From Kribbella flavida DSM 17836 (lineage in GTDB: Bacteria > Actinomycetota > Actinomycetes > Propionibacteriales > Kribbellaceae): a stretch of 64,000 nt of DNA. The position numbers and the translations under genes were made by a program. Below are positions 16,064 to 30,930 of the stretch, one piece after another. Where the stretch lies: positions 372,001 through 436,000 of the forward strand of contig NC_013729.1 in assembly GCF_000024345.1 (NCBI RefSeq), written 5' to 3'. The notes below the pieces were generated by a model. The model was not told where the DNA came from and did not search any database. It saw nothing but the letters and a program-made list of their open reading frames with translations. How positions within the stretch are numbered: position 1 is the stretch's first letter; every line of letters starts with the position of its first letter.

Positions 16064-16120
16064 TGGCGGAGGATACGAGATTCGAACTCGTGAGGGGTTG
16101 CCCCCAACACGCTTTCCAAG
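16064..16120. repeat. attL: displaced 3' end of tRNA-Ser
   Basis: These 57 bases are identical to 30843-30899 and cover the CCA end, discriminator, acceptor 3' strand, T arm, variable arm and part of the anticodon arm of tRNA-Ser on the minus strand. The sequence diverges immediately after 16120. The fragment cannot fold as a tRNA, since it lacks the D arm and the 5' acceptor strand. Confidence 0.95.
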
Positions 16121-16238: not shown

Positions 16239-16373
16239 CCAGCCCACAACTGTGCCCCCATCGGACGCCGGTCTGGCACCGCGACCGCATGCGACACCAA
16301 ATCCCGCGCAGGACTGGACCGGTACTGGCAGAATCTCCCCCGGTAACAGGGTGTGTTTGCCAGGGGAGGAATC

Positions 16374-17849: not shown

Positions 17850-18726
17850 TCGCCAGCTCCGTTTGCCGGATAACGTCAGCTACATAGCGCGAGGCGATCA
17901 TTAGTTCATCTGCCTGTCCTGGATGCCTTGCGGAGTAATTCAGCGCGTAACGCCGCTGGAAACTCTTGGCATATAGCCTTTCAATGAGTGGTGAGGTGTC
18001 ATACGTCATTAGCCAATGAGCGCCTTTGATGCCGTTGACAACCTTCGCAAGAGCCGTATGGTCGCGGTGTTCGAATGAGTTGAGGTACAACTGCGATCCT
18101 GCTTTAACGTATGGCGGATCGATATACATAAATGCGTTCGTGTCATTTGCATGGGCAAGGATTACTGCGCGCCCGTCCGTATTGCTGACTGTGATCTTGT
18201 CTGAGAGCCTACCGATCGCGCTTATTCGTTCTGACAGAGTGGATCTGTTAAAACGAGCGTCGATCTTGTAGGTACCGGTTTGCGCAAGGCCGCCAATAAC
18301 GCCGCCGCGGAGTACGCCGGAGCGGTTGGTGCGATTCAGGTAGAAGAACGCAAATCCAAGTGCGAGGAGGTCTGACTCGTCGGCCGCACGGTAGATCTCA
18401 CGCTGGGCTGACCATTCATCGATCGTCAAGGGGGTGGTCTCGACGAGTTCGACGAAGGCCTCGTTCTTGTGGACGACGCTATGCCAGAAAGCGTGCACGG
18501 CTGGATCTAGATCGTTGATGACGAGATGGTCGACGAGTTCGTTCCGTAGGAGTGCGATCCCCGCGCCCGCCCCGCCAGCATACGGTTCGACGTAACAGGG
18601 AGTGGGGAGCGCCAGGGCTGCAATCACATCCGCGAACAGGCCCGCGAGCGCGGACTTACCCCCCGGATACCTGAGCGGAGACAGCGTTCCGTATCGCCGC
18701 GACGCTACGACCTTCACTCGCTCCAC
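17824..18726 (-). CDS. D12-class DNA adenine N6-methyltransferase (Dam-like)
   Basis: The 300-residue enzyme has N-terminal PLRYPGGKSALAGLF, the SAM-binding motif YVEPYAGGAGAGIAL, FFYLNRTNRSGVLRGG and the catalytic motif IV DPPY in FMYIDPPYVKAGSQLY. This order is that of D12-class (Dam/DpnM) adenine methylases that modify a short target such as GATC; the target here is unknown. The base composition is clearly lower in GC than the chromosome. Its 3' end overlaps that of the convergent ParB-like gene. No classical restriction endonuclease is adjacent, so it is either an orphan methylase protecting the element or half of a modification system with the ParB-like protein. Confidence 0.92.
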   Translation of the reverse strand: MERVKVVASRRYGTLSPLRYPGGKSALAGLFADVIAALALPTPCYVEPYAGGAGAGIALLRNELVDHLVINDLDPAVHAFWHSVVHKNEAFVELVETTPLTIDEWSAQREIYRAADESDLLALGFAFFYLNRTNRSGVLRGGVIGGLAQTGTYKIDARFNRSTLSERISAIGRLSDKITVSNTDGRAVILAHANDTNAFMYIDPPYVKAGSQLYLNSFEHRDHTALAKVVNGIKGAHWLMTYDTSPLIERLYAKSFQRRYALNYSARHPGQADELMIASRYVADVIRQTELATTDASIGT

Positions 18727-18835
18727 TTACGATCCTCTCGTCCACCGCACTGCCCCGGGCAGTCAGTATTTCGTATAAGTAGCGCCTGGTCACCCACTGT
18801 CTCTGAGTGAGTCCGAGTCAAGTAAAGGTGCGCTA

Positions 18836-19513
18836 TCAGCGAATCGCTGCTGCGATAGCGAACATCGAGTCGACGACCGCGGATGCGCCGGAGTGTGTCA
18901 ACGCTTCCGACTTGCCGGGCTTGTTGGCGTACCCGATGATGCGGGTTCCGGCCGCCCGCCCGGCCTCCATGTCACTAGCCTGATCACCAATGAAGACACA
19001 AGCTGCCGTACGGATGCCAAGGGCAACCGTCGCGCGATCGAGTAGGTGTGGGCTGGGCTTCATCAAAGTCGGGTCCGAGGGGTCGCGGCCCTCAACATGC
19101 GCTACTCGGTCGGCTAGGCCGGTGCGGACGAGGTAGCGCACGACGGCTTCGGTGTAGTTGTTGCTCACGATCGCTACCAGCTTGCCGCTGCTCTTGCAGG
19201 CGGCCAGCGACTCAGCTGCGCCCGGAGTGGGCCGCGCAGTTTCCACCGCCTTTATCTCGGCTTCCTGCAAGGCCCGCTCAAGCCGGGTCGCGAGCCGCTG
19301 ATCGGTGGCGGCCGCTAGCAGCAACTCGTGAGGACCGGCAGGCTTTCGCAGTGCCTCGTCAAGGTCGTGCGGAAGCGTGCCGGCCAACTCACGAAGCTCG
19401 GCCGTGATGCGCTGGGCGGGGTATCCGTCGAACACGGAGCAGATCGGTCCGTCGAAGTCGAAAAGGACTGCGTCAGCTGAGTCGAATAGCTGTCGGAGTG
19501 GATCGGTTGTCAC
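18836..19513 (-). CDS. HAD-superfamily hydrolase in the repressor operon
   Basis: The 225-residue HAD phosphatase has motif I DAVLFDFDGPIC (nucleophile Asp), motif II-like VAIVSNNYT, motif III Lys in TLMKPSPHLL and motif IV CVFIGDQASDMEAG. This is the subfamily of small phosphoglycolate phosphatase-like enzymes. The GTG at 19513 overlaps the GntR stop codon (GTGA), which indicates translational coupling. In some AICEs this slot after the GntR repressor is held by a Nudix hydrolase, so a HAD enzyme here may play an analogous nucleotide-clearing or signalling role; that part is inference. Confidence 0.8.
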   Translation of the reverse strand: MTTDPLRQLFDSADAVLFDFDGPICSVFDGYPAQRITAELRELAGTLPHDLDEALRKPAGPHELLLAAATDQRLATRLERALQEAEIKAVETARPTPGAAESLAACKSSGKLVAIVSNNYTEAVVRYLVRTGLADRVAHVEGRDPSDPTLMKPSPHLLDRATVALGIRTAACVFIGDQASDMEAGRAAGTRIIGYANKPGKSEALTHSGASAVVDSMFAIAAAIR

Positions 19514-20364
19514 AGTTCGCGGACCTGCCCGAGTGTGCCCCACAGGCTTTCGAACCACCGGCGCGCCTGCTCGACATACTGCGACCCCGTGGCCTGGTCA
19601 TTGTCGCTGGTCGAGTGGTGGAAAAGCACCGTGTCTTTGCCGACTGCATCGAAGATTGAGACGTGCTCGCCCTCGATCTCGACCTCCCGCTCTACGACTG
19701 GATAGAACCCGAAGAAGATCTCTTCATCGTTCAACGCGTAGAGCTTGAACATCATCGGCAGCCCAACCACCACACGCGCCTCGACTTCGGTTTTCGGGAC
19801 GAGCCCCAACTCTCCGAGTTCGCGGACGGATTGGATGATCTCTCCTGCCGACCGGTGCGCAATTCCTGCGACCCGTGCACGTACTCGGGGATCGTCACCA
19901 GGAGTTTCCCCGGCGCGAGACGGTACGGCGATCGGTTGGTTCAGATCCGGTAGAAGCATGCGTATTGTGATCGATTGCGGAGTGAGGCGACCGCGTCTAA
20001 TGCGGTCGATTGGCTCCTCAAGCGCACCGAGCAGCGTTTCGCCAGTCAACCCGGCGAAGTCGATGCGCACCTCGTCCTGTTCGAACGCCTTCTCGATGTG
20101 CGGGCGGAGGCCGACCGCCTGGTCGGCCTGCTCGCGGACGTACACGCCGCTTCCGACACGGGACACGATCAAGCCTTCGTCGCGCAAGATTCGTAGAGCC
20201 TGCTGGATGGTCATCCGGGCAACGCCGTACTGCGTCGCTAGCTCGTTCTGAGACGGGAGCTTTTCGCCCGCCTTCACCTTCTTCGTGAGGATCGCCGCGC
20301 GTAGAGCGTTGGCGACCTGCTTGAACGGCGGTCGCGGGTCAGACGGATCTAGCTGCTGCTCCAT
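19510..20364 (-). CDS. GntR-family repressor (KorSA-like), element regulator
   Basis: The 284-residue protein has an N-terminal GntR winged helix (FKQVANALRAAILTKKVKAG, KLPSQNELATQYGVARMTIQ, RDEGLIVSRVGSGVYV) and a C-terminal effector domain of about 200 residues without a clear UTRA signature. In pSAM2-type elements a GntR protein, KorSA, represses transfer and replication. It is divergent from the DUF6284-to-int gene run, and the shared intergenic region is full of CTAG-centred dyads, one inside the promoter spacer. It is therefore likely to repress both itself and the forward operon. The following HAD gene is coupled. Confidence 0.85.
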   Translation of the reverse strand: MEQQLDPSDPRPPFKQVANALRAAILTKKVKAGEKLPSQNELATQYGVARMTIQQALRILRDEGLIVSRVGSGVYVREQADQAVGLRPHIEKAFEQDEVRIDFAGLTGETLLGALEEPIDRIRRGRLTPQSITIRMLLPDLNQPIAVPSRAGETPGDDPRVRARVAGIAHRSAGEIIQSVRELGELGLVPKTEVEARVVVGLPMMFKLYALNDEEIFFGFYPVVEREVEIEGEHVSIFDAVGKDTVLFHHSTSDNDQATGSQYVEQARRWFESLWGTLGQVREL

Positions 20365-20377
20365 GCTCGCAAGCTTA

Positions 20378-20478
20378 CTAGCTGACTAGGCAGGCTAGGG
20401 CAATCCTGTCCAAATGCTTGACCTGGCTAGCCAGCCTATGTAGCTTTCTGCCTACGAGAATCTGGCTAGGCAGGCTAG
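20378..20478. promoter_or_regulatory. CTAG-rich operator array for the GntR repressor
   Basis: CTAGGCAGGCTAG occurs twice in direct orientation (20386-20398 and 20466-20478, exactly 80 bases apart), and the perfect palindrome CTGGCTAGCCAG lies between them at 20423-20434. Further half-sites (CTAGCTGACTAGG from 20378; CCTAGTCAGG just beyond 20480) flank these. CTAG is rare in this genome, so the cluster is unlikely by chance. Position between the divergent repressor and the element operon supports operators. Confidence 0.7.
20418..20446 (+). promoter_or_regulatory. Forward operon promoter with operator in the spacer
   Basis: A -35 TTGACC (20418-20423) and -10 TAGCTT (20441-20446) are separated by 17 bases. 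The palindrome CTGGCTAGCCAG lies almost wholly inside this spacer, so a bound repressor would block RNA polymerase directly. The first gene starts about 108 bases downstream of the expected start site. Confidence 0.6.
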
Positions 20479-20492
20479 TCGCCTAGTCAGGT

Positions 20493-20524
20493 GGCGTCTC
20501 GGCGGTGGCACCCGCCGAGACGCC
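20493..20524 (+). promoter_or_regulatory. Strong leader hairpin upstream of DUF6284
   Basis: GGCGTCTCGGCGG and its exact complement are separated by a 6-base loop, a 13-bp stem in the untranslated leader between promoter and first gene. It has no U-tract. It could be an attenuator, an RNA-stabilising structure or a further protein-binding dyad. Confidence 0.55.
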
Positions 20525-20560
20525 TGGGCCGTACTAGCCGTCTGAACAGGAGCACAACCC

Positions 20561-20809
20561 ATGAGCATCATCCACCTGTCGGCCGTCAGTGGCGAGGAAC
20601 CGACCGCTGCTGACCTGGCCGGTATTGAGGCGGAATGGCCGCTGATCGCGGCTGAGCTGGATCTGTTAGACGCGCAGATCGCGTTCATCAACGCCGGTCC
20701 GCATGCGTCGGAGCTGGAGACGCGGCGGATCCGCCGCGCTGAGCGTCGCGTGCTGGAGGTGGGCCGGGAGTTGGCCGACCGCGTACCGGAGACGGAGGGC
20801 GCGGCATGA
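20561..20809 (+). CDS. DUF6284-like small protein
   Basis: The 82-residue acidic, largely helical protein (MSIIHLSAVSGEEPTAADLA; DLLDAQIAFINAG; RRIRRAERRVLEVGRELADR) resembles DUF6284 proteins that lead the transfer/replication operons of actinomycete integrative elements. AGGAG precedes the ATG. It is the first gene behind the GntR-controlled promoter and overlaps the next gene by ATGA. The molecular role is not known; its small size and position suggest a regulatory or accessory protein. Confidence 0.7.
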   Translation: MSIIHLSAVSGEEPTAADLAGIEAEWPLIAAELDLLDAQIAFINAGPHASELETRRIRRAERRVLEVGRELADRVPETEGAA

Positions 20810-21027
20810 CCGCGCAGGCCGTCGAGATGCCCCTCCCGGATCTCACCCGGGTGGATCTGGGCTGGTGGAAGGTCGCGGGTTACGACCTGGTGCAGGTTGT
20901 CTCGCCCCGTACAGCGCTGGGTACGGCGTGGATCGTGTGGCGCGGCGACCACGTCTTGCACACCACCGACACGCTGCCGCACGCGGGTCAGTGGGTCATG
21001 ACGCAGGTCGGAGGTGGCGTGCGATGA
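20806..21027 (+). CDS. Small hypothetical protein of the element operon
   Basis: The 73-residue product (MTAQAVEMPLPDLTRVDLGW) reads as a compact beta-rich domain with WWKVAGYDLVQVV and TAWIVWRGDHVLHTTDTL strands. No family is recognised. Start and stop codons overlap both neighbours in the ATGA form, so it is translated as part of the operon and is a real gene despite its size. Confidence 0.65.
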   Translation: MTAQAVEMPLPDLTRVDLGWWKVAGYDLVQVVSPRTALGTAWIVWRGDHVLHTTDTLPHAGQWVMTQVGGGVR

Positions 21028-21920
21028 GCACCCTCACAAAGGCCCCGAGCACCGCGCCAGCGGTGGCCAAGTCCAACGGCGTTGAGCGGTTGCGGACGGC
21101 GGCTGCTGAAGCGTCGCAGGTGCGTGCGCTGTCGACTCATCCGGACGTGGTGGCGCTGCGGGTGGAGTCGGTACGTACGCAGGTTGACCGCTGCATGTGG
21201 GTCGGCATCGTGCTGGGTCTGGCGTTCACGATGGTCAACGTGCAGGCGTTCGCCGCGCAGGGTGCTGCGCTGTGGTCGCTGCCGTGGTTCGCCGCGTGGC
21301 TGCTGGACCCGATGGTGTCGCTGGTGCTGATCGCGGTTCTACGGGCCGAGCAGATCACCGCCCGGTATCAGGTGAGCGACCACACCAAGTGGATCGGCCG
21401 GACCAAGCGGTTCGCGTTCGCCGCGACGTACGCCATGAACACGTGGCACTCGTTCGTTCACCTGGACGTGGCCGGGATCGTGCTGCACTCGGTGCCGCCG
21501 CTGCTGGTGTTCTGCGCGGCTGAGACCGCCCCGGTACTGCGCGACCGGCTGACCGAGGCCGTGCTGCGAGCCGAGCGCACCGCGGCGCTGGCCGACCCGG
21601 CGGGGGCATCTCACCACCTCGACACCACCCCCGCGGCTGCCGAGCCGCCTGCCACGATCGAGAGCCGGGAGAAGCCTGCCAAGACGGGCCGGAAGCTGCT
21701 GGCCGACTACGTGACCGAAGCCCTGGCAGCGATCGAGCCTGGCACGGCGGCCGACGCGATCACCCCGGCGTGGGCGCGGCACACCACCGGTTGCTCAACC
21801 GGGCTGGCGGCAAAGGTTGCCGCGGCTGTCCGCGACGAACTCACCAGCTCCCAGACCGCGAACCACACGAGCGCCGACGACACGGACGCACCGGGCGAGA
21901 CTGCCCGCGTCGCGGCCTGA
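21024..21920 (+). CDS. SpdB/DUF2637-like membrane protein (conjugal spread)
   Basis: The 298-residue protein has a soluble N-terminus and about three to four membrane segments (MWVGIVLGLAFTMVNVQAFA; LWSLPWFAAWLLDPMVSLVL; VAGIVLHSVPPLLVFCAAET), followed by a charged C-terminal tail with a winged-helix-like segment. This is the DUF2637/Spd pattern found beside traB in Streptomyces plasmids and AICEs, where Spd proteins help spread the element between mycelial compartments. The ATG at 21024 overlaps the previous stop; longer in-frame extensions upstream lie over the two preceding genes and are rejected. traB follows 19 bases downstream. Confidence 0.75.
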   Translation: MSTLTKAPSTAPAVAKSNGVERLRTAAAEASQVRALSTHPDVVALRVESVRTQVDRCMWVGIVLGLAFTMVNVQAFAAQGAALWSLPWFAAWLLDPMVSLVLIAVLRAEQITARYQVSDHTKWIGRTKRFAFAATYAMNTWHSFVHLDVAGIVLHSVPPLLVFCAAETAPVLRDRLTEAVLRAERTAALADPAGASHHLDTTPAAAEPPATIESREKPAKTGRKLLADYVTEALAAIEPGTAADAITPAWARHTTGCSTGLAAKVAAAVRDELTSSQTANHTSADDTDAPGETARVAA

Positions 21921-21939
21921 CCGATAGGAGCGAGACGGC

Positions 21940-24204
21940 ATGGACAACGTGCACAAGCTTCACCCCGACCACGACCAAGACCGCGACGCCACCGAAGACC
22001 GCCCGCAGGACGTTGCTCCGGGCATCGTCAGTGAGCCGTCCGAGCGCGTGGACGCCACCGACACCACGGCGGCCGATGCTGAGGTGGTTGAGGGCGAGAT
22101 CCTGACCGAGGAAGAGTCCGCCGAGCTGGACCGCCGCCTGGCCAGCCGTGGCGCGCTTGTGCGCCGGGCGGTGACGACGACGCAGGTAGTGGCGCGAGCG
22201 TCCAAGACGGTCGCCACGCACGACCGGACGAAGACGGCCGGGAAGGTGTTGCTGCGCGAGGGATTCACGGTCGTGCAGGGTGTCGAGTCCTGGGCCAAGC
22301 GGGCGTGGGACGCCTCGACCATGGGTGTCTACCGGCGGCAGATCAAGGCCGCTGAGGCGGTCGGTGACCGCGAGGAACTGAAGCAGTGGACCGACCGGAA
22401 GGAGGCCGCAACAGACCGCCGCCACAAGCGGCTGATGGACCTGCCGAAGCTCGCGTGGGGCGTCCTCAAGGTCACCGTGGCAATGACGATCGGTGTGCCG
22501 TTCCTGGTGCTGCTGATCGCGATCCTGACCAAGGCCACCGGGCACGGCTCGTTCACCAGCGTGTGGCTGGGGTTCTTCGCGCTGATCGGATTCCTGATCG
22601 CGGCTGGTGCGGTCATCTGGTCCGGCGTCTCGATCGCGGCACCGTTCCTGGTCGTGCTCGCTGCCTGGCGCGAGGGCAAGCGGCGTGCGGAGCCGCCCGC
22701 GTGGCTGGTTACCACGGCCGACGCCGAGTGGGACGCGGCGATCGATGAAACCACGATTGCTAAGGCCCTGGAGGCGCTGCGCATCCCGGCGATCACGCAA
22801 TACCTGAAAGCCGGTCTGAAGCTGCAGTTCATCACCCCGGCCCGCGTGGACGGTCGCGGCACCCACGCGATCGTGAGGCTGCCTGCCGGTGTCACGGCGG
22901 AGAAGATCGCGCGGCGTCGTGGTGACCTGGCGACCGGTCTGCACCGGGCAGCCAAGGAGGTGTGGCCGACCACCGGCAGCGAGGCCGGGATCTTGGATCT
23001 GTGGATCGCGGACAAGGGCGCGCTCGCTGAGGGCGCGGGTGAGTATCCGCTGCTGGCCGGCGGTCTGGTGGACGTGTTCAAGGGCGTGCCCGCTGGCAAG
23101 ACGCTGCGCGGTGATGCGCTGCTCGCGCTGATCATGGAGCGCAACACGATGACCGGTGGCATGCCGGGTCAGGGCAAGTCCAGCGCGGCGCGGGCGATCA
23201 TGGCCGGGTGTGCGCTGGACCCGACCGCGGAACTGCGGATCTGGGTGCCGGACACGAACTTTGACTTCGAGGTGTTCAAGCCGCGGTGCGCGAACTACAT
23301 CATGGGCGCGGACGACGATTCCATGAAAGCTATCCGCGATCAGCTCGTGAACGTTCATGAAGAGGTCCAGCGGCGCGGTGAGCTGCTGATTCGCTACGAA
23401 CAGCCCGCTGTGACTCGTGAACTCGCCAACGCCGGGGTCGGGCTGCACCCGCTGATCTGCCTGCTGGAGGAAGCGCACGTGGCGATCACGGACGACACCT
23501 ACGGCAAGGAGATCTCCAAGTTGCTGGTGGAGATCGTGAAGCTCGGACGCAAGCGCGGCATTCACATGATCGTGTCCACGCAGGCACCAACACGGGATTC
23601 GATGCCGCGTGACGTGACCCGGAACTGTTCCAACGGGATCGCGTTCGCGGTCGGTGATCACGTCGCGAACGACGCGCTGCTCGGTCAGGGCGCGTACGCG
23701 GCCGGGCACCGGGCAACCGAGCTGATTCCCGGCACCGACAAGGGCACCGCGGTCGTCAAGGGCTTCACCGGCGAGCGGAGCGAGATCTTGCAGTGGTACT
23801 ACCTCGATGTTGCCAAGGGCAATGACCAGGTGACACCTCTGATCAAGCGGTCGCTGGAAGCGATCGCCAAGCTCGGCAGGACGATCCCGGACAGCAAGTC
23901 GGTGCAGATCGAGGCGCGTGACTTGCTCTCGGACCTGGACGAGGTGCTTGGAGACGACCCGCGGCCGATCGCGGACGTGCCCGCGCTGCTCAAGCGGCAC
24001 GCGCCGTCCTGGACGCCGTACCAGTCGCTCACCGGTAAGGCGCTGCGCGAGCTGCTGGACCGCGAGCACGGGATCAAGGTCCCCTCGACCGGGAACCGCT
24101 ACCCGCTCGATCCGGCTACCGTACGTGACGCGATCGTGCGCCGCGAACAAGCCACCGCGGACGGCGACGACAGCGGCGACGACGCCGGGACGCTCGCGAG
24201 TTAG
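21940..24204 (+). CDS. TraB-type FtsK/SpoIIIE conjugal DNA translocase
   Basis: The 754-residue protein is the transfer motor of the element. It has a disordered N-terminus, a membrane region at about residues 170-245 (VTVAMTIGVPFLVLLIAILT; SVWLGFFALIGFLIAAGAVI), a FtsK ATPase with Walker A GGMPGQGKSSAARA near 405 and Walker B LICLLEEAH, the VSTQAPTRDSMP sensor block, and a C-terminal winged-helix (SLTGKALRELLDREHG). Actinomycete TraB moves double-stranded DNA from donor to recipient by a single protein, recognising short repeats (clt) through the winged helix. Candidate recognition repeats occur just downstream and in the replication gene. Confidence 0.92.
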   Translation: MDNVHKLHPDHDQDRDATEDRPQDVAPGIVSEPSERVDATDTTAADAEVVEGEILTEEESAELDRRLASRGALVRRAVTTTQVVARASKTVATHDRTKTAGKVLLREGFTVVQGVESWAKRAWDASTMGVYRRQIKAAEAVGDREELKQWTDRKEAATDRRHKRLMDLPKLAWGVLKVTVAMTIGVPFLVLLIAILTKATGHGSFTSVWLGFFALIGFLIAAGAVIWSGVSIAAPFLVVLAAWREGKRRAEPPAWLVTTADAEWDAAIDETTIAKALEALRIPAITQYLKAGLKLQFITPARVDGRGTHAIVRLPAGVTAEKIARRRGDLATGLHRAAKEVWPTTGSEAGILDLWIADKGALAEGAGEYPLLAGGLVDVFKGVPAGKTLRGDALLALIMERNTMTGGMPGQGKSSAARAIMAGCALDPTAELRIWVPDTNFDFEVFKPRCANYIMGADDDSMKAIRDQLVNVHEEVQRRGELLIRYEQPAVTRELANAGVGLHPLICLLEEAHVAITDDTYGKEISKLLVEIVKLGRKRGIHMIVSTQAPTRDSMPRDVTRNCSNGIAFAVGDHVANDALLGQGAYAAGHRATELIPGTDKGTAVVKGFTGERSEILQWYYLDVAKGNDQVTPLIKRSLEAIAKLGRTIPDSKSVQIEARDLLSDLDEVLGDDPRPIADVPALLKRHAPSWTPYQSLTGKALRELLDREHGIKVPSTGNRYPLDPATVRDAIVRREQATADGDDSGDDAGTLAS

Positions 24205-24215
24205 CTCCGTGCCAT

Positions 24216-24263
24216 GGGCCGGAAACCTGCCGAAACCAGCCCTGACCAGGCGGTTTCCGGCCC
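24216..24263. terminator. Hairpin after traB
   Basis: GGGCCGGAAACC (24216-24227) and GGTTTCCGGCCC (24252-24263) form a perfect 12-bp stem, extended inward by GCC/GGC after one bulged base. It starts 11 bases after the traB stop and is a likely terminator or processing structure. Confidence 0.6.
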
Positions 24264-24366
24264 ACGGCTAACTCGGTTCACTCGCTAACTTTCCGCAGGT
24301 CACGGCCACATTAGCCACCCCTGGTGGTCGGAGTTAGGAACCTAACCCGATCGCCGGTATCTAACC
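24264..24366. repeat. CTAAC/GTTAG repeat cluster, candidate transfer locus (clt)
   Basis: CTAAC occurs at 24268, 24285, 24342 and 24361, and GTTAG at 24333; GTTAGG-AA-CCTAAC (24333-24346) forms an inverted repeat. TTAGCC also occurs at 24311. The cluster lies in the 245-base gap after traB, which holds no gene. Actinomycete clt loci are typically short repeat clusters close to traB, so this is one of two candidates in the element. Confidence 0.45.
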
Positions 24367-24449
24367 GTCCCACCTCACCGAACCAGGCCGACACCCAACG
24401 GGTGCTCGCCGTAGCTCGTCACGCCCTCTTGCGACTACAGAAAGTGATA

Positions 24450-24767
24450 ATGATGACTGATCCCGTTCACGCCGTCCTACTCGGTGGCTCCGGACTCGTC
24501 CTCGCTGGACTCGCGGCGGCTGCCGACGCGGCCGACGCTCTCAGTCGCCCCGAACAGGTCGCGGTCCTGGTCATTGCCGCGCTCATCCTGTCCGGGCTGT
24601 ACCTGCTCGCCTGCACGCTCTGGCCCTACGCCAACTGCCCCCGCTGTGCAGGGTCGGGCAAGTCCCGGTCGCCGTCCGGCAAGTCGTTCCGCAACTGCCC
24701 CCGCTGCAAGGGAACGGGGCGTCGCGAACGATTCGGCCGCCGCCTGCTCAACAGGGGAGACCGCTGA
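24450..24767 (+). CDS. Small membrane protein with DnaJ-like zinc ribbon
   Basis: The 105-residue product has one or two N-terminal membrane segments (VLLGGSGLVLAGLAAAADAA; AVLVIAALILSGLYLLACTL) followed by two CxxCxGxG motifs (NCPRCAGSGKS and NCPRCKGTGRR), the zinc-binding half-sites known from DnaJ. Similar small genes follow traB in other actinomycete elements. The ATG at 24450 has only a weak GAAAG site. The 3' end is coupled to the next gene by TGATG. The function is unknown; zinc binding is inferred from the cysteines. Confidence 0.65.
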   Translation: MMTDPVHAVLLGGSGLVLAGLAAAADAADALSRPEQVAVLVIAALILSGLYLLACTLWPYANCPRCAGSGKSRSPSGKSFRNCPRCKGTGRRERFGRRLLNRGDR

Positions 24768-25189
24768 TGTGCGCCGCGCTGGCAGGTCTCAGTCTGCACC
24801 CGGCCAAGGCGGAATGGATCGAGCTGTGGAACGGCAAGCAGGCGCTCGGCTGGGACTACTACGGGACGCCGATGTTTCGGTTCCGGTGGGCACCCGCAGG
24901 GCTGGCCACCCGCCGCCAGCTCCGAGCGATGCGCATGTCTCCGGGTGGCCAGGAGCCGTACGCGCTGCTGGTCTGGCGCAACGGCAAGCGGTGGGCGTGG
25001 TTGTACCGGCTCGATCTCGCCAAGCCCTCCCGTGTGCCATCACCGGCCCAGCTCAACGCCCTCGACAGGGCCATGCAGGCACGCCGCACCTGCGGACTCT
25101 GCGGGACCGTCACCGTCTACTGCATCCCCACCTCAGACGGCCGTTGCCTGGACTGCATCGATGCCGCCAGCTACCCGACCGCCGCCTAA
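24767..25189 (+). CDS. RRQRL-type zinc-binding protein
   Basis: The 140-residue protein carries ATRRQLRAMRMSPGGQEPYA, matching the RRQRL-motif family, and a C-terminal zinc ribbon formed by CGLCGTVTVYC and CLDC. The start overlaps the upstream stop (TGATG). Proteins of this type are widespread in actinomycete integrative elements and plasmids, next to replication genes. A role in nucleic acid binding is plausible from the ribbon and basic motif but unproven. Confidence 0.75.
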   Translation: MCAALAGLSLHPAKAEWIELWNGKQALGWDYYGTPMFRFRWAPAGLATRRQLRAMRMSPGGQEPYALLVWRNGKRWAWLYRLDLAKPSRVPSPAQLNALDRAMQARRTCGLCGTVTVYCIPTSDGRCLDCIDAASYPTAA

Positions 25190-25208
25190 CACTCGAGAGG
25201 AGATCCCG

Positions 25209-26081
25209 ATGAACGACCTACTGACCGCCGCCCTCGCTGCTGCTGCTCGTGGCTGGCCGGTGTTCATGCTCGGTCGCTCCAAGCGGCCGGTTGCCAACTG
25301 CGACGACTGCCGCGACAACCCGCACGACCCGGCGACCTGTGGGCATCTGACCTGTCACGGGTTCTACGCCGCCACTACCGACCCTGAACGCGTCGCACAG
25401 ATCGTCGCCGCGGTCCCGGACGGACAGCTCGCCGTCCGGACCGGTGCCGTGGCCGGGCTGGTGGTGGTCGACGTGGACCCCGCGCACGGCGGCAACGACA
25501 GCCTTGCCGAGCTGGTCACGCACCAACTGGTGCCGCGCACGCTGTGGGTCCGCACTGGCTCAGGCGGAGCGCATCTGTACTACCGGCACCCCGGTCGCGA
25601 GATCGCGTCGCGGCCGATGCCGGGACGGGCCGGGATCGATGTGAAGGCTGACGGCGGGTACGTCGTACTGCCGCCCTCGATGCACCACCGCACCCACCTG
25701 CCCTACCAGTGGGGATCGGGTCCGGCCGACCCGACCGAGATGCCCCCCGCGCTGATCACCGCATGCCTGCCCGCTACGCCGGCCGAATCCGCTACCCGCA
25801 CGGCCGGGCCGATCCGGACGACCCGAGCGGGGGGCATCTCGAACCCAGAAGGGCTGCTCACATCCACCCTCAACGCCGTACGCAACGCACCTGAGGGCAA
25901 GCGCCGAACGACGCTCTACGGCGCTGCGAGAGGCGTTGCGCGGATGGTCGCGGCCGGTGCGATCAGCCACGCCGACGCGATCGCCGCGCTGACCGCTGTG
26001 GGGCAGCAAGTCGACCAGACCGCCCGCGACATTCGAGCCGCTATCTCCGGTGGCTTCCATGACGAAGGGATTGCCGCATGA
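25209..26081 (+). CDS. Bifunctional DNA primase/polymerase (Prim-Pol)
   Basis: The 290-residue protein matches the Prim-Pol N-terminal domain: WPVFMLGRSKRP, a cysteine/histidine cluster (CDDCRDNPHDPATCGHLTCH), the catalytic VVVDVDPAHGG (DxD metal site), LYYRHPG, and GIDVKADGGYVVLPPS. It ends with a helical primase C-terminal segment. Prim-Pol proteins prime and copy DNA without a separate primase and are the replication initiators of one AICE class. GAGGAG precedes the ATG. The stop overlaps the DUF3631 start (ATGA), so the pair is translated together as the replication module. Confidence 0.9.
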   Translation: MNDLLTAALAAAARGWPVFMLGRSKRPVANCDDCRDNPHDPATCGHLTCHGFYAATTDPERVAQIVAAVPDGQLAVRTGAVAGLVVVDVDPAHGGNDSLAELVTHQLVPRTLWVRTGSGGAHLYYRHPGREIASRPMPGRAGIDVKADGGYVVLPPSMHHRTHLPYQWGSGPADPTEMPPALITACLPATPAESATRTAGPIRTTRAGGISNPEGLLTSTLNAVRNAPEGKRRTTLYGAARGVARMVAAGAISHADAIAALTAVGQQVDQTARDIRAAISGGFHDEGIAA

Positions 26082-27430
26082 CCACCCCCGACCCGATCGA
26101 CGCTCACCGCATCGACGGTGCCGAGCTGCTGGACGAAGTGGCCGCGACCATCACCCGCTACGTCGTACTCCCGAGCGACGCCGCCTTAACCGCAGTCGTG
26201 TTGTGGATCGCCGCGACGCACGCCGTACCGGCCTGGAACTGCGCGCCCCGGCTCGTGATCCGCGCCCCGGAGAAGCGGTGCGGGAAGTCGCGGCTGCTGG
26301 ACATGGCTGATGGCATGGTGCACCGGCCGCTGATGACCACCAACGCGTCCCCGTCCGCGGTGTACCGGTCGATTGGGCTCACGCCGTCCGATCCACCGAC
26401 GCTGCTGATCGATGAGGCTGACACGATTTTCGGACCGAAGGCGGGCGACAACGAAGACCTGCGAGGGCTGCTGAACGCCGGTCACCAGCGCGGACGGCCG
26501 ACCCTGCGGTACGACGCCGGATCGCGCAGTGTCGAGCGGATCGAGACGTTCGCCATGGCCGCACTGGCAGGGATCGGCACAATGCCGGACACGATCGAGG
26601 ACCGGGCCGCGGTGATCCGGATGCGTCGCCGCGCGGCCGGTGAGACCGTCCAGCCCTACCGGGTTCGCCGGGACGGGCCGGTGCTGGCCGATCTGCGCGA
26701 CCGTCTCCACGCGTGGGTTACCGCGCACCTGGACGAGCTGACCAGCGCGGCACCGTCGATGCCCTTGGAGGACCGTGCGGCCGACACCTGGGAACCGCTG
26801 ATCGCGCTGGCCGATCTAGCAGGCGGCGACTGGCCGCAGGCAGCCCGTCAGGCCGCGTTGACGCTGCTCGCTGAGCTACAGGACTCCACAGAGGTTTCAC
26901 TGTCGGTCCGGCTGCTGAGTGACTGCCGGACCGCCTTCGGCGCGGCATCCGCGTTGCCCTCGACCGTGCTCGTACAACGGCTGCGCGCCGACGAGGAATC
27001 GCCGTGGCAGGAGGGTCCGGGTGTCGGCGGTCTGACCGTGCGGCGACTGGCCGCGCTGCTGCGCGAGTTCGACATCACCCCGAAGAACCACCGCTGGGAG
27101 GACGGCACCCAGTCCAAGGGCTACACCCGTGATGACTTCACTGACGCCTGGGCGAGGTACTGCCCTGAACCGGCCGAAATCGGCTCTAGTCAACCAACCG
27201 TCGCGAACCGTCCCAACCGTCCCAACGCAGGTCACGCCGGGGACGGATCGGTCCTGAGGGACGGATCGAACCGTCCCAACGATCCATCCGTCCCCGCTCT
27301 GACCTGGGCAGGGACGGTTGGGACGGATGGGACGGATCACCCACCCAAACCCGCCCAGCCAACCTGCATCCGTTGCCGACGGCCCCTTTCGGAGGACGAC
27401 GGCAGCCACACCCACCCGAACTGCGCATGA
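26078..27430 (+). CDS. DUF3631 helicase-like ATPase of the replication module
   Basis: The 450-residue protein has a P-loop-like RAPEKRCGKSRLLDMADG (Walker A variant), TLLIDEADTIF (Walker B) and the DUF3631 core (LLNAGHQRGRPTLRYDAG; AALAGIGTMPDTIEDRAAVI; LSVRLLSDCRTAFG), then a winged-helix-like GLTVRRLAALLREFDITPKN. It probably loads or acts as the replicative helicase with the Prim-Pol. The last 80 residues are low-complexity (NRPNRPNAG, GTVGTDGTD) because the DNA there encodes a 9-bp iteron array, followed by a CxxC...H zinc-like tail (CIRCRRPLSEDDGSH). Confidence 0.85.
   Translation: MTTPDPIDAHRIDGAELLDEVAATITRYVVLPSDAALTAVVLWIAATHAVPAWNCAPRLVIRAPEKRCGKSRLLDMADGMVHRPLMTTNASPSAVYRSIGLTPSDPPTLLIDEADTIFGPKAGDNEDLRGLLNAGHQRGRPTLRYDAGSRSVERIETFAMAALAGIGTMPDTIEDRAAVIRMRRRAAGETVQPYRVRRDGPVLADLRDRLHAWVTAHLDELTSAAPSMPLEDRAADTWEPLIALADLAGGDWPQAARQAALTLLAELQDSTEVSLSVRLLSDCRTAFGAASALPSTVLVQRLRADEESPWQEGPGVGGLTVRRLAALLREFDITPKNHRWEDGTQSKGYTRDDFTDAWARYCPEPAEIGSSQPTVANRPNRPNAGHAGDGSVLRDGSNRPNDPSVPALTWAGTVGTDGTDHPPKPAQPTCIRCRRPLSEDDGSHTHPNCA
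27206..27337. repeat. Nine-copy 9-bp iteron array inside the replication gene
   Basis: The 9-mer GGGACGG(A/T)T occurs nine times without mismatch in 132 bases. Plus-strand copies start at 27240, 27258, 27311, 27320 and 27329. Minus-strand copies cover 27206-27214, 27215-27223, 27269-27277 and 27286-27294. The last three plus copies and the first two minus copies are directly tandem. A degenerate copy lies at 27196. The outward-inward arrangement and position at the end of the replication module suggest an origin of replication or a TraB recognition locus. Confidence 0.85.
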
Positions 27431-27468
27431 GTGAACGCGACGGACTGACTGAAGGAGATCTCTTCCCG

Positions 27469-27696
27469 ATGAGCATCGCTGAAGCCTCGATCACCAACAC
27501 TGCGCCGCTCTTGCTGACCGTGGAGCAGGCCGCGCAGCAGCTCGGCATCGGCCGGACAACTGTGTTCGCTCTGCTGAAGTCGGGCGAACTCGAATCGATC
27601 CCGCTCGGTCGCCTGCGGCGAATCCCAGCGGAGTGCATCACCGAGTACATCGATCGTCTCCGGGCCGCCGCCCGCGATAACCGACAGGCCGCCTAG
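27469..27696 (+). CDS. xis: Excisionase (Xis), helix-turn-helix
   Basis: The 75-residue protein is a MerR-like winged helix of the excisionase family: LLTVEQAAQQLGIGRTTVFA, then LLKSGELESIPLGRLRRIP and a C-terminal helix. It would bend attL/attR DNA and direct the integrase to excision. The ATG at 27469 has an excellent GAAGGAG site; an in-frame ATG at 27427 overlapping the previous stop would add 14 residues and cannot be excluded. The integrase starts 12 bases downstream. Confidence 0.88.
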   Translation: MSIAEASITNTAPLLLTVEQAAQQLGIGRTTVFALLKSGELESIPLGRLRRIPAECITEYIDRLRAAARDNRQAA

Positions 27697-27708
27697 GAGG
27701 GAATCCCA

Positions 27709-29004
27709 ATGAGCGACGAGAAAGCGAAGCGTCACAAGAATCCTGACGGCCGGTCGTCGATCTACTTCGGCTCGGATGGTTACTGGCACGGTCGCGTCAG
27801 CATGGGCGTGAAGGACGACGGCACGCCGGATCGGGCACACGTGAAGCGCAGACGTAAGGAAGACGTGGTGGCGCGCGTCAAGGAGTTGGAGAAGCAGCGT
27901 GACAGCGGCAAGATCCGTCGCGCTGGTCCGAAGAATTGGACAGTGGCGCAGTGGCTCACGCACTGGCTGACGATCACGCGGCCGACACTGCGGGACGGCG
28001 CGTATGACGCCTATGAAGTCGCGGTGCGGGTGCATCTCATCCCTGGTCTCGGAGCGCACAAGCTGAACAAGTTGCTGCCCGAGCACCTGGAGCGCTTCTA
28101 CGCCAAGATGCAGGCCAACGGATCGAGCGCCGGCACAGCTCACCAGGCTCACCGCACGATCCGGAGAGCGCTGGGGGAAGCCGAGAAACGTGGCGCGCTC
28201 ACGGCCGACAATCCTGCCGAGCTGGCGATTCCGCCGCGCCTGGACCTGGACGAAGAGGACGAGATCGAGCCCTACACCGTGGACGAGATCAAGGCGATCT
28301 TGGCTGAGGCGAACAAGCACCGGAACAGTGCGCGCTGGGCCATCGCCCTGGCGCTCGGATTGCGGCAGGGCGAGGCGCTGGGACTGAAGTGGTCGGACAT
28401 CGACATCAAGACCGGAGTTCTGCGGGTCCGGCGGAGCCTGAATCGGCCGAAGTACAAGCACGGGTGTGCTGACGACCCGTGCGGCCGAAAGCCGGGGTTC
28501 TGTCCGAAGCGTCAGAAGGCCCGGCCGGACTCGGCGCCGACTAAATCGCGAGCCGGTCGCCGGACGATCGGTCTACCGGCCGAGCTGACGAAGATCCTGC
28601 AGGCGCACTGGCAGGAGCAGGCCGCCGAAAGGACTCTCGCCCGGCAGCTCTGGAAGGACGAAGGATGGGTGTTCGCCAAGCGAACCGGAGAAGCGCTCAG
28701 CCCGAACATGGATTACCGGGAATGGAAAGCGATGCTGGCGGCTGCCGGGATTCGTGACGGCCGACTGCACGATGCCCGGCACACGGCCGCGACGGTCCTG
28801 CTGCTGCTCGGTGTGCCCGAGCGGGCCGTGATGGACGTGATGGGCTGGTCCTCATCATCGATGGTCAAGCGGTACCAGCACGTGACCGCGCCGGTTCGGA
28901 TGGACATTGCCGAACGCGTCGGCGGCCTGCTCTGGTCGGCCATGGAGGCAGGGGAGGAGGATGACCCGGGCGAGGCAGCCGGCGGGGTTCACGTGCCTGC
29001 CTGA
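27709..29004 (+). CDS. int: Tyrosine-recombinase integrase
   Basis: The 431-residue phage-type integrase has an N-terminal AP2-like arm-binding region (DGRSSIYFGSDGYWHGRVSM), a SAM-like core-binding domain (residues about 80-180), and a catalytic domain with Arg in ALGLRQGEALGLKW, HxxR in LHDARHTAATVLLLLGV, a His/Trp-position GWSSSSMVKRYQHVT and the nucleophile Tyr in KRYQHV. A Cys-rich insert (CADDPCGRKPGFCPKR) in the catalytic domain resembles that of other AICE integrases. It recombines the 57-bp tRNA-Ser core. GGAGGGA precedes the ATG. A hairpin follows. Confidence 0.95.
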   Translation: MSDEKAKRHKNPDGRSSIYFGSDGYWHGRVSMGVKDDGTPDRAHVKRRRKEDVVARVKELEKQRDSGKIRRAGPKNWTVAQWLTHWLTITRPTLRDGAYDAYEVAVRVHLIPGLGAHKLNKLLPEHLERFYAKMQANGSSAGTAHQAHRTIRRALGEAEKRGALTADNPAELAIPPRLDLDEEDEIEPYTVDEIKAILAEANKHRNSARWAIALALGLRQGEALGLKWSDIDIKTGVLRVRRSLNRPKYKHGCADDPCGRKPGFCPKRQKARPDSAPTKSRAGRRTIGLPAELTKILQAHWQEQAAERTLARQLWKDEGWVFAKRTGEALSPNMDYREWKAMLAAAGIRDGRLHDARHTAATVLLLLGVPERAVMDVMGWSSSSMVKRYQHVTAPVRMDIAERVGGLLWSAMEAGEEDDPGEAAGGVHVPA

Positions 29005-29043
29005 GAGGCTGTGAGGCGCCCTCGTCGAGACGATTGGACACGG

Positions 29044-29074
29044 GTGGGGCCGGACGGTGATCGTCCGGCCCCAC
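29044..29074 (+). terminator. Integrase terminator
   Basis: GTGGGGCCGGACG and CGTCCGGCCCCAC form a perfect 13-bp stem with a 5-base loop, 40 bases after the integrase stop. The core GGGGCCGGACG recurs in the hairpin at 30747-30779. Confidence 0.75.
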
Positions 29075-29153
29075 TAGCGTTAGTGCCCTAACGGCGAGAG
29101 CCTTCTGAACTGCAGAATCGCGATTCTGGGTCCCTCTACGAGAAGGGCTCGTG

Positions 29154-30416
29154 TCACCGAAGGCTCCAATTAGCCTGGTCGCGAGGACCGTCTAATTGCA
29201 TTGAAATCCTTGGCAGTGTATCGGGCGCCCCGGCTAGCATCGGCGAAAGCTCGCCTCTAACCGTCTCGCGAGGCAGCCACAGGCGACTCGTGAGGACTTC
29301 GGACATGAACGCTCGGCATGCCCAGAGTTGAAGAGCATGGCCCTCGACTCGCCGAGAGACGGTGCGGCCCAGGTGCCAATTGAATTCAGTTCCATCTGGG
29401 TGATCGGGGGCAGCCAACCCCGTGAGATCGAGCAATGCGATTGCGCGGTCGCGCATCATGGGGTGGGTGTTGCGAGGCTCCAGGCCCAGCGGGTTGCTGC
29501 TGGGCTGTGCCGCTGTCAGTTCTTCCATCAGATCGAACGCGAGGAGTGCCGAGAATGCGGCGGCAACGGCGTCGATTGCGCGGCCGTAGCTCGCCGTTGC
29601 GTCTGCGCCGTCCCCGAGGAGCAAGAAGAGTGCCAGTGCGTCAGCTTCGAATTCGTGTAGGTGAGACTTTGATATGTCTGTCGGGAACTCATGGTCGATT
29701 TCAGCGAATCTCTGCGTAAGGTACCGCCGTGCGGGCGCGCTCGAATTGCTCGCCGCCTTCGCTGGATGGTTCAGAAGATGATGAGATAACTCGTGGGCTA
29801 GAACGAACTCTGCGGCGCGATCGGCGAAGTACAAATGCATCGTATTCGGGTGGGGGAGTTTCACCCATCGACCCGCCAGGCGCGGCAGATCCTTTGGGCT
29901 GCGCACAAGGTCAGAAACTAGACGCTTAGCCTCGCCGAGAAGAAAGTCATGGTGTCGGTGGGCGAACTGCTTGCCAGTATCCTCCATATGGGCAATCGCG
30001 TCAGCCGTCGGCAATATCTTTTTGGGACTTCGCTTTAGCTCGATTCCCATGAACTTGCGAAAATCGTCAAGAAAGGATGCGATAGCGGTTCCTAGGAAGC
30101 CCAGCATGACGCGTGCAGGTTGACTCAGTATCACGACGCGTGAGGTGGCGCCGTATGCGATAGCCTCTGCTTGGATTGTCGTTGTATGTGAAGGGGTCGC
30201 CACTAATACTCGTTCGATGTATGGTGCGAGACTGGCGGGGGCGTTTGCATGCAGAAAAGCAATCTGCTCGCGGAGGCCCTCCGAACTCGCGGCAGCGATT
30301 ATCTGCTCCTTCTTGGCTCTGCTGAGAGTCTGGGTCGGCTTGATGAATCGGCTGATGTAGTCAGATCGTGCTTGATCAAGGTTCCAACTTGGTTCTCTGG
30401 ATATGATCCCTCCCAT
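29154..30416 (-). CDS. HExxH zinc metallopeptidase-like protein (element cargo)
   Basis: The 420-residue protein has FVLAHELSHHLLNH, an HExxH zinc site, and about 55 residues later HLHEFEADALALFLLLGDG, fitting the third glutamate ligand and Asp of M48-like gluzincins. A hydrophobic patch (MLGFLGTAIASFL) precedes the active site, but there is no signal peptide. The rest is helical and unassigned. The GC content is well below the chromosome. It lies between int and attR on the opposite strand, the usual place for AICE cargo. The ribosome site is weak, so the start is uncertain. A defence, toxin or regulatory protease role is speculative. Confidence 0.7.
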   Translation of the reverse strand: MGGIISREPSWNLDQARSDYISRFIKPTQTLSRAKKEQIIAAASSEGLREQIAFLHANAPASLAPYIERVLVATPSHTTTIQAEAIAYGATSRVVILSQPARVMLGFLGTAIASFLDDFRKFMGIELKRSPKKILPTADAIAHMEDTGKQFAHRHHDFLLGEAKRLVSDLVRSPKDLPRLAGRWVKLPHPNTMHLYFADRAAEFVLAHELSHHLLNHPAKAASNSSAPARRYLTQRFAEIDHEFPTDISKSHLHEFEADALALFLLLGDGADATASYGRAIDAVAAAFSALLAFDLMEELTAAQPSSNPLGLEPRNTHPMMRDRAIALLDLTGLAAPDHPDGTEFNWHLGRTVSRRVEGHALQLWACRAFMSEVLTSRLWLPRETVRGELSPMLAGAPDTLPRISMQLDGPRDQANWSLR

Positions 30417-30715
30417 GTCGGGCGTGCACTTAATCCAGGTCGGCGTGTAATTTTGTTAGCTGTGTCGGGCCGGGACGTCGGCCAATTGGGTGTGGCCTGG
30501 TGATGTGCGCCTAGGCATGGGAGGACGATAGCTGTCATGGTCGGCAAATGGGACAGTCGGTCGCGACGTTATCCCGGACTGGTGCCAAGACCACCTCTAC
30601 GACAGTGGGACACCGGACGGTCGCCCGTCGAACGGTTCGATGCGGCACTTGGGGTGAGCGAGCGGCCCGTGACGACGGCTCGGAAGGGGCGCCGGTTCCT
30701 GCCCGAGAGGGATCG

Positions 30716-30739
30716 TTGAGACCCTCGTTGAGACCCTGG
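30716..30739 (+). promoter_or_regulatory. Right-end integrase arm-type repeats (candidate)
   Basis: TTGAGACCC at 30716-30724 is followed by TTGAGACCCTGG at 30728-30739, 12 bases out of register, matching the pair at the left end in sequence, phase and orientation. They lie 103 bases before the attR core. Confidence 0.6.
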
Positions 30740-30746
30740 GGCATGA

Positions 30747-30779
30747 AGAGGGGCCGGACGCTGAGCGTCCGGCCCCTCT
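30747..30779 (+). terminator. Strong hairpin near the right end
   Basis: AGAGGGGCCGGACGC and its exact complement enclose a 3-base loop, a 15-bp stem. It lies between the arm-type repeats and attR and may insulate the element from the tRNA gene, which is transcribed towards it. Confidence 0.7.
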
Positions 30780-30842
30780 GTCGTTCGTGCCTCCGGAGTC
30801 CGAAACCTGGCCTTGACCTGCGGTTTCTTCAGTCCGGGAGAC

Positions 30843-30899
30843 TGGCGGAGGATACGAGATTCGAACTCGTGAGGGGTTGCCCCCAACACGCTTTCCAAG
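30843..30899. repeat. attR core within tRNA-Ser
   Basis: The 57 bases are identical to attL (16064-16120). Here they are supplied by the element and restore the 3' part of the tRNA gene. Confidence 0.95.
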
Positions 30900-30930
30900 C
30901 GTGCGCCCTAGGCCTCTAGGCGAATCCTCC
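30843..30930 (-). tRNA. tRNA-Ser (anticodon GGA)
   Basis: Read on the minus strand, the gene has a 7-bp acceptor stem GGAGGAT/ATCCTCC, a D arm containing CCTAGAGGCCTAGG, the anticodon arm CACGC-TTGGAAA-GCGTG with anticodon GGA, a long variable arm (class II), GGTTCGAATC-type T loop (GAGTTCGAATCTC), discriminator G and an encoded CCA. The long variable arm and GGA anticodon identify serine (UCC/UCU codons). It is the integration target, and its function is preserved after insertion. Confidence 0.95.

What the first reader, a model, noticed from the sequence alone, without database searches (positions are those of the whole stretch)
27206..27337. Nine perfect 9-bp iterons hidden inside the replication gene
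GGGACGG(A/T)T occurs nine times, five on one strand and four on the other, within 132 bases of the DUF3631 coding end, with tandem triplet and doublet blocks. Keeping such DNA in frame has forced a low-complexity protein tail. Iterons in this place suggest the origin of the element or the TraB recognition site, embedded in coding DNA.
Basis: partly seen in the sequence, partly recalled or inferred. Interest (0 to 1): 0.76.

Follow-up and report, generated by a model that had tools for sequence, protein, structure and literature searches.

The report
Replication origin hidden inside initiator gene
A small mobile DNA element in a soil actinobacterium carries what is very probably its replication start site as a mirror-symmetric set of nine short repeats inside the end of the gene for its own replication protein, and one amino acid of that protein predicts one letter of the repeats across about 125 related elements.

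Summary
GGGACGG(A/T)T occurs nine times in 27206-27337 (5 on +, 4 on -), plus a tenth copy with one mismatch. The copies lie in all three reading frames of the DUF3631 (RepAM) gene. They form a dyad-symmetric array inside a 14.8-kb AICE (16064-30899, tRNA-Ser).

The array is a family-wide feature. All 81 assessable homologous loci carry one at the same place with the same kind of geometry (typically <9<9<22>18>13<18<22>9>9>), although the repeat sequence differs between lineages. The RepAM stop codon lies after, within or before the array (55, 66 and 19 loci), so selection acts on DNA.

Decisive evidence: iteron base 3 (G or T) is matched by RepAM residue 337 (Asn or Thr) in 76/76 training loci and 47/49 new loci, through at least 11 independent switches. 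Residue 337 lies in the wing hairpin of a predicted winged helix. Prim-Pol, TraB and integrase show nothing comparable.

Best explanation: RepAM is an AAA+ initiator helicase whose C-terminal winged helix binds these iterons, and the array is the element's replication origin. It works like SaPI Rep, SCCmec Cch2 and pWTY27 RepA origins. The TraB-site reading and the published rolling-circle prediction are disfavoured. Binding and origin activity are not shown experimentally.

The parts
16064..16120 (.). attL: 57-bp exact direct repeat of the 3' part of the tRNA-Ser gene; left end of the AICE
   Evidence: exact 57-bp repeat with 30843-30899
30843..30899 (.). attR inside tRNA-Ser(GGA) 30843-30930(-); right end of the AICE (about 14.8 kb)
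   Evidence: tRNA; repeat
21940..24204 (+). TraB-like FtsK/SpoIIIE DNA translocase
   Evidence: weak FtsK_SpoIIIE and plasmid_TraB matches, below curated cut-offs
25209..26081 (+). [quoted passage not shown]
   Evidence: Pfam PF09250, E 2.4e-40; start codon read
26078..27430 (+). RepAM-type initiator: AAA+ ATPase (Walker A around 64-71, Walker B 110-113) with DUF3631, C-terminal winged-helix-like domain (about 275-361), array-encoded linker, Cys/His tail
   Evidence: Pfam PF12307 E 1.2e-70; AlphaFold models; Foldseek
27083..27127 (+). codons 336-350: predicted wing beta-hairpin (strands 336-339 and 345-350); residue 337 (Asn) predicts iteron base 3
27196..27204 (-). degenerate tenth iteron, GCGACGGTT (1 mismatch)
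27206..27214 (-). iteron GGGACGGTT, left outer block
27215..27223 (-). iteron GGGACGGTT, left outer block
27227..27234 (+). second conserved motif GCAGGTCA, left arm
   Evidence: one of the motif variants is in 129/140 arrays against 7.9 expected
27240..27248 (+). iteron GGGACGGAT, left inner
27258..27266 (+). iteron GGGACGGAT, left half of the core dyad
   Evidence: '>13<' core present in most relatives
27269..27277 (-). iteron GGGACGGTT, right half of the core dyad
27286..27294 (-). iteron GGGACGGAT, right inner
27300..27306 (+). second conserved motif TGACCTG, right arm (inverse of the left-arm motif)
27311..27319 (+). iteron GGGACGGTT, right outer block
27320..27328 (+). iteron GGGACGGAT, right outer block
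27329..27337 (+). iteron GGGACGGAT, right outer block
27196..27337 (.). whole proposed origin (RepAM-binding iteron array), dyad centre about 27267.5
27472..27696 (+). HTH_17 protein, probable excisionase (start codon not certain)
27709..29004 (+). tyrosine integrase

Best explanation
The array at 27196-27337 is the replication origin of a RepAM/Prim-Pol type AICE. The DUF3631 (RepAM) protein is a AAA+ initiator helicase whose C-terminal winged-helix domain binds each iteron; residue 337 in the first strand of its wing helps read iteron base 3 (Asn with G, Thr with T). The 5+5 inverted array would assemble RepAM on both sides of the dyad, probably as two oppositely facing rings that open the DNA, after which the adjacent Prim-Pol makes primers. 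Shown here: the repeats, their conserved geometry, DNA-level selection, and residue-base covariation. Inferred: physical binding, origin activity, two-ring assembly and priming. The origin overlaps the 3' end of the initiator gene, so the specificity domain and its target are inherited as one unit; in many relatives the stop codon lies within or before the array.
For: (1) Family-wide array just after the winged-helix codons, with fixed spacings: << 9 (91 times), >> 9 (96), >> 18 (53), >< 13 (88), <> 22/23 or 31/32 (126). It is usually the densest such cluster in the 13-kb locus. (2) The geometry persists to about 43% identity although the iteron becomes TGTAGCGG, GGTTCCG or GTTACGG; two circular 13.5-14.3-kb Streptomyces plasmids carry GGTAGCGG arrays in the same place. 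(3) The stop codon floats: array all inside 55, spanning 66, all after 19 of 140 loci; copies of one orientation lie in more than one frame in 66. (4) Covariation: base 3 G with Asn337 52/52, T with Thr337 24/24, p 2.7e-20, 8 independent supported switches (iteron types assigned before the proteins were aligned). New loci 47/49. Pooled tree without the wing: 11 supported independent pairs, 10.7 on average the same way, 0 opposite. (5) Best columns elsewhere reach only 2.8e-6 (Prim-Pol), 4.6e-6 (TraB) and 3.5e-7 (Int). (6) AlphaFold puts 337 in the wing hairpin at pLDDT about 90. Foldseek returns ORC, MCM, NrS-1 and SaPI PriRep1 bound to dsDNA, the best at E 1e-5 to 1e-3. (7) RepAM was reported as responsible for pMEA300 autonomous replication (PMC3218068).
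Against: No A+T-rich unwinding element is visible near the array. Exceptions to the residue-base rule: L249 (Thr with mainly GGGACGG), L273 (Asn with GGTACGG; wing Arg339 replaced by Asp), L025 (Asn with TGTACGG; Arg339 replaced by Ser) and mixed arrays in L021 and L032. Many Streptomyces homologs (50-57% identity) have degenerate arrays that give no clear call. TM-scores in Foldseek are low (0.2-0.4). Covariation shows a shared specificity, not that the site is the origin: operator or copy-control roles of the same binding are not excluded.
Confidence: 0.86

Rival explanations
1. The array is the TraB recognition site (clt) of the element, bound by the TraB C-terminal winged helix.
For: Published clt sites are also clusters of short repeats (PMC3583192).
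Against: No TraB column tracks iteron base 3 (best p 4.6e-6 against 2.7e-20 for RepAM residue 337). None of 59 loci with traB has 3 or more GG(G/T)ACGG in the 350 bp after traB, whereas many have other repeat clusters there (CGCTACC, CCGCTAG, CGGGGAG). In the window that stretch (about 24200-24370) has GTTAG/CTAAC repeats instead, a better clt candidate.
Confidence: 0.04
2. The array is a rolling-circle origin (dso/sso hairpin), as predicted earlier for RepAM elements.
For: PMC3218068 reports that RepAM was predicted to be a rolling-circle initiator. The array folds as one long hairpin, -59.8 kcal/mol, z -9.7.
Against: RepAM has no HUH motif and no Rep nuclease domain; its only Pfam hit is DUF3631 and its fold matches are AAA+ helicases. 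It sits beside a Prim-Pol. Across 120 loci, arm positions 1-8 outside the core dyad are complementary in only 8-40% of loci, so a continuous stem is not conserved; iteron positions are.
Confidence: 0.05
3. The array is an operator or copy-control site where RepAM binds, and the origin lies elsewhere.
For: The covariation shows binding specificity, not its purpose; iterons often serve both initiation and control (general knowledge).
Against: A 3' position downstream of the rep coding region is unusual for an operator of rep; the >130-bp dyad geometry with outer tandem blocks is conserved to about 43% identity. Comparable initiator helicases (SaPI Rep, SCCmec Cch2) have their origin or putative origin at this place (PMC7581432).
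Confidence: 0.05
4. The repeats are only a low-complexity coding tail (protein-level repeat) without DNA function.
For: In the window the whole array is in frame.
Against: Copies lie in three frames and both strands; synonymous null mean 0.25 against 9; the stop codon lies before the whole array in 19 relatives, and L025, L035 and L087 show this in the first set.
Confidence: 0.003

Closest known systems
SaPI Rep/ori (staphylococcal pathogenicity islands), including PriRep1
   Same: [quoted passage not shown] PriRep1 bound to dsDNA is among the top Foldseek hits.
   Different: No sequence homology to solved Rep chains found; here the array overlaps the coding end and shows a residue-base code; the partner is a Prim-Pol; the elements are conjugative AICEs, not phage satellites.
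pWTY27 RepAB/iteron (Streptomyces)
   Same: Prim-Pol (RepB) plus a large RepA with an adjacent iteron region made of short repeats in both orientations forming a ~105-bp inverted repeat; RepA binds it in EMSA and footprinting, and replication is bidirectional (PMC3583192). The plasmid is probably an excised AICE (PMC3218068).
   Different: The iteron is GTGGGAAC and lies in a noncoding region; whether pWTY27 RepA is a DUF3631 protein could not be checked, because the record is not held.
RepAM AICEs (pMEA300 family, DUF3631)
   Same: Same initiator family by Pfam and same element layout (PMC3218068).
   Different: The open-access source read here describes no iteron array or specificity code for RepAM and reports a rolling-circle prediction. 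The primary pMEA300 replicon papers are not held.
SCCmec Cch2 / CCPol-MP
   Same: Helicase C-terminal domain binds direct repeats just downstream of the gene (putative origin); a primase-polymerase is encoded beside it (PMC7581432).
   Different: Only three AAGTG iterons, noncoding; non-canonical primase.
pRN1 ORF904 and phage P4 alpha
   Same: Primase + helicase + C-terminal winged helix; the origin lies 3' of the gene (pRN1) or is made of repeats bound by the winged helix (P4) (PMC4234260).
   Different: The pRN1 origin is a stem-loop without iterons and no specific binding was seen; P4 uses a Toprim primase.

Membership tests
RepAM/Prim-Pol AICE | DUF3631 initiator, Prim-Pol, FtsK/TraB translocase, tyrosine integrase, HTH excisionase | tested here: met
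   (TraB match weak)
RepAM/Prim-Pol AICE | Integration in the 3' end of a tRNA gene with flanking direct repeats | tested here: met
   57-bp att repeat in tRNA-Ser, element about 14.8 kb
RepAM/Prim-Pol AICE | Excision and autonomous replication | not testable with these tools
   indirect only: relatives exist as 13.5-14.3-kb circular plasmids
Iteron-type replication origin | Multiple short repeats beyond chance next to the initiator gene | tested here: met
Iteron-type replication origin | Conserved place and spacing in relatives | tested here: met
Iteron-type replication origin | Cognate initiator recognises the repeats | tested here: inconclusive
   strong covariation; physical binding not tested
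Iteron-type replication origin | A+T-rich unwinding element (usual, not universal) | tested here: not met
   G+C 0.53-0.73 around the array
Iteron-type replication origin | Array sufficient for replication with its initiator | not testable with these tools
   needs a minimal replicon
Rolling-circle replicon | HUH nuclease or other Rep endonuclease domain in the initiator | tested here: not met
   only DUF3631 in Pfam, no H-hydrophobic-H in the sequence, AAA+ helicase fold matches
TraB clt/TRS site | Repeats recognised by the TraB C-terminal winged helix, next to tra | tested here: not met
   no TraB covariation; iteron cluster absent beside traB in 59 loci
SaPI-type Rep/ori (works like) | AAA+ initiator helicase with C-terminal origin-binding domain, origin just 3' of the gene | tested here: inconclusive
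   architecture and place fit; no sequence homology to solved Rep chains, so works-like only

The most novel reading that the evidence does not exclude
RepAM origins form a decodable recognition system. The wing hairpin of the initiator and the iterons encoded a few codons downstream switch together (Asn337 with GGGACGG, Thr337 with GGTACGG, Met/Leu/Ala337 plus a PL-RGY wing with GT(T/A)ACGG, Lys337 type with GGTTCCG), creating replication compatibility groups. Elements that share a chromosome are selected to carry different codes (11 of 12 co-resident pairs differ against 7.7 expected, P 0.036, exploratory). Because specificity domain and origin overlap in one stretch of DNA, new codes can spread as one unit.
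Probability: 0.45. Interest if true: 0.76.

Novelty: new variant of a known kind. Interest (0 to 1): 0.66.

Why it matters
RepAM (DUF3631) elements are abundant: 222 of 396 sampled genomes of one actinobacterial family have a homolog. The family is still named a domain of unknown function and was predicted to replicate by rolling circle. This work places the probable origin of the whole family, gives it a fixed anatomy recognisable by computer, and names a residue and a base that can be swapped in one simple test. It also shows how a cis-acting site can live inside its own trans-acting gene, leaving a low-complexity protein tail as a by-product. Compatibility of AICEs and design of actinomycete vectors follow directly if the code is real.

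Tried and rejected
TraB site: rejected on covariation and place. Rolling-circle or hairpin origin: the array does fold, but a continuous stem is not conserved and no nuclease domain exists. Protein-level repeat: rejected. Chance: rejected. First AlphaFold model with the tail gave only weak Foldseek matches; a trimmed, deeper alignment gave better ones. Profile search against PDB sequences found no homolog. pWTY27, the best experimental analogue, could not be fetched; a guessed accession gave an unrelated phage and a repeat-based query found nothing useful. att repeats right after int were not found; they lie at the tRNA-Ser gene instead. Searches from G163 and G280 added little.

Full report
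1. Observation. GGGACGG(A/T)T is present exactly as described: nine perfect copies in 27206-27337, five on the + and four on the - strand, against a shuffle mean of 1.8 for the whole 64 kb. With the tail's amino acids fixed and synonymous codons redrawn, the mean is 0.25 and the maximum 4. The copies fall in three ORF frames and give NRP, DGS, SVP and GTD/GTV, so one DNA word produces unrelated peptide motifs. A tenth copy with one mismatch lies at 27196(-). The layout is a dyad: < < < (gap) > > core < < (gap) > > >, centred near 27267.5.

2. Setting. The host is a complete 7.58-Mb genome whose closest matches are Kribbella. The array lies in an AICE of about 14.8 kb bounded by a 57-bp repeat of the tRNA-Ser(GGA) 3' part (16064-16120 and 30843-30899). 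It carries a GntR regulator, TraB-like translocase, Prim-Pol, DUF3631 protein, HTH_17 protein and tyrosine integrase. DUF3631 is the RepAM initiator family of pMEA300 (PMC3218068). The same genome has a second RepAM gene (68% identical) with GGTACGG iterons.

3. The array is a family trait. Among 80 homologous loci in GTDB genomes plus the window and its second copy, every locus in which the region is complete carries an array right after the winged-helix codons; L042 ends in the array region. The repeat word differs: GGGACGG, GGTACGG, TGTACGG, GTAACGG, GCCACGG and others. Spacings are quantised: tandem 9, inner 18, core 13 (two 9-mers 2 bp apart), arm gaps 22/23, or 31/32 when one copy is missing; a few loci (L022, L025, L032, L035, L037, L075) have a different inverted layout. 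The geometry survives to about 43% protein identity with entirely different words, for example TGTAGCGG with <9<9<31>18>39<18<31>8>9> in L172. Circular Streptomyces plasmids of 13.5 and 14.3 kb carry GGTAGCGG arrays at the same place. A second motif, CAGGTCA in the left arm and TGACC(A/T)G in the right, sits in the arm gaps; one of its forms occurs in 129 of 140 arrays against 7.9 expected.

4. DNA, not protein, is conserved. In 140 callable loci the array lies wholly inside the ORF in 55, spans the stop in 66 and lies wholly after it in 19; copies of one orientation occupy more than one frame in 66. In L035 the Cys/His tail seen after the array in the window follows the winged helix directly and the array lies after the stop codon. 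The low-complexity tail is thus a by-product.

5. Who binds it. Iteron types were called from DNA before the proteins were aligned: 52 loci GGGACGG, 24 GGTACGG, 6 left out as mixed, other or incomplete. On the DUF3631 tree the type changes 12 times (8 forced by supported branches). Residue 337 is Asn in 52/52 and Thr in 24/24 (p 2.7e-20; 8 supported independent pairs, all the same way). The neighbouring columns 336, 342 and 344 come next. The same scan of Prim-Pol, TraB and integrase gives best p-values of 1e-6 to 1e-7, the level expected from shared ancestry.

6. Test on new loci. Loci from further genome searches at 57% identity or more, not identical in the array to earlier ones (some are near relatives of them), gave Asn-GGG 28, Thr-GGT 19, contradictions 2. 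Pooled: 123 of 125 agree. On a tree built without the wing, 11 supported independent pairs, on average 10.7 the same way and none opposite. Two of the three clear exceptions (L273 and L025) have lost the otherwise nearly invariant Arg339 of the same wing strand; L249 has no such excuse. In the mixed array of L021 (Thr337) the inner copies are GGT and most outer ones GGG. Other wings go with other words: Met/Leu/Ala337 with PL-RGY and GT(T/A)ACGG; Lys337 with GGTTCCG.

7. Structure. AlphaFold (pLDDT 82.6, pTM 0.70) shows an AAA+ core and a C-terminal winged helix with wing strands 336-339 and 345-350; blocks 321-350 have pLDDT of about 87-92. Foldseek returns MCM, ORC, NrS-1 primase-helicase and SaPI PriRep1 with dsDNA, the ten best at E below 1e-3 with low TM-scores. 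So an AAA+ initiator helicase is likely; a rolling-circle nuclease is not seen.

8. Mechanism. Most likely RepAM monomers bind the iterons through the winged helix; the dyad places two sets facing each other, which suits two rings loaded in opposite directions; AAA+ activity opens the DNA and Prim-Pol primes. Binding preference is supported by covariation; ring assembly, opening and priming are inferred from SaPI Rep and Cch2 (PMC7581432), pRN1 and P4 (PMC4234260) and pWTY27, whose RepA binds a 105-bp inverted iteron region and replicates bidirectionally (PMC3583192).

9. Rivals. TraB site: no covariation, no such cluster near traB; other repeats occupy the traB 3' flank. Rolling circle or hairpin: the strand folds well, but the complementarity is confined mostly to iterons and the second motif, and positions 1-8 from the core are 8-40% complementary. 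Operator: possible as an additional role.

10. Novelty and limits. Iteron origins beside initiator genes are known, so this is a new variant of a known kind. New, as far as the open library shows, are the location of the origin for the DUF3631 family, its overlap with coding DNA, and the residue-base code. Most subscription papers, including the primary pMEA300 work, could not be read, so part may already be described there. Co-resident elements differing in code (11 of 12 pairs, P 0.036) is a single exploratory test.

Noticed in passing
window 24200-24370: Noncoding stretch just after traB with repeated GTTAG/CTAAC words in both orientations, kept in L012, L018 and L050; other TraB types have CGCTACC, CCGCTAG, CGGGGAG or CCTCTAG clusters at this place. 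A likely clt (TraB site) family.
   Followed up: partly
window 24242 and 24296; 27227 and 27300: The motif CTGACCAG / GCAGGTCA occurs both in the proposed origin and in the traB 3' flank (25 of 59 loci against 4.4 expected there). It may be a site for a shared second protein.
   Followed up: partly
window 27361-27430; L020-L023, L035, L037, L040, L077: A short Cys/His tail (CIRCRRPLSxDDGSHTHPxC) follows the array in frame in several lineages, and directly follows the winged helix in L035.
   Followed up: no
own genome 3,591,459-3,592,691 (L002/L095): Second RepAM gene in the same chromosome, Thr337 with GGTACGG iterons, so the two elements carry different codes.
   Followed up: partly
L229, L243, L264 (one genome, G1246): Three RepAM elements in one genome with three different residue-337 classes (Asn, Thr, Met).
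   Followed up: partly
L133, L140, L144: Homologs with a shortened wing and CGTCAGA / TCTGACGG iterons in a related geometry: a further code class.
   Followed up: no
window 17824-18726(-) and 29154-30416(-): Possible cargo inside the element: a D12-class adenine methyltransferase and a weak peptidase M48 match.
   Followed up: no
window 28993-29088 and 30695-30791: 75% similar stretches at the int 3' end and next to the tRNA-Ser, including a terminator-like hairpin; possible trace of an earlier insertion.
   Followed up: no
L079, about 7000-7500: A second repeat, CGGTAAC / GGTTACCG (12 and 8 copies), close to the GGTACGG array in this Amycolatopsis locus.
   Followed up: no
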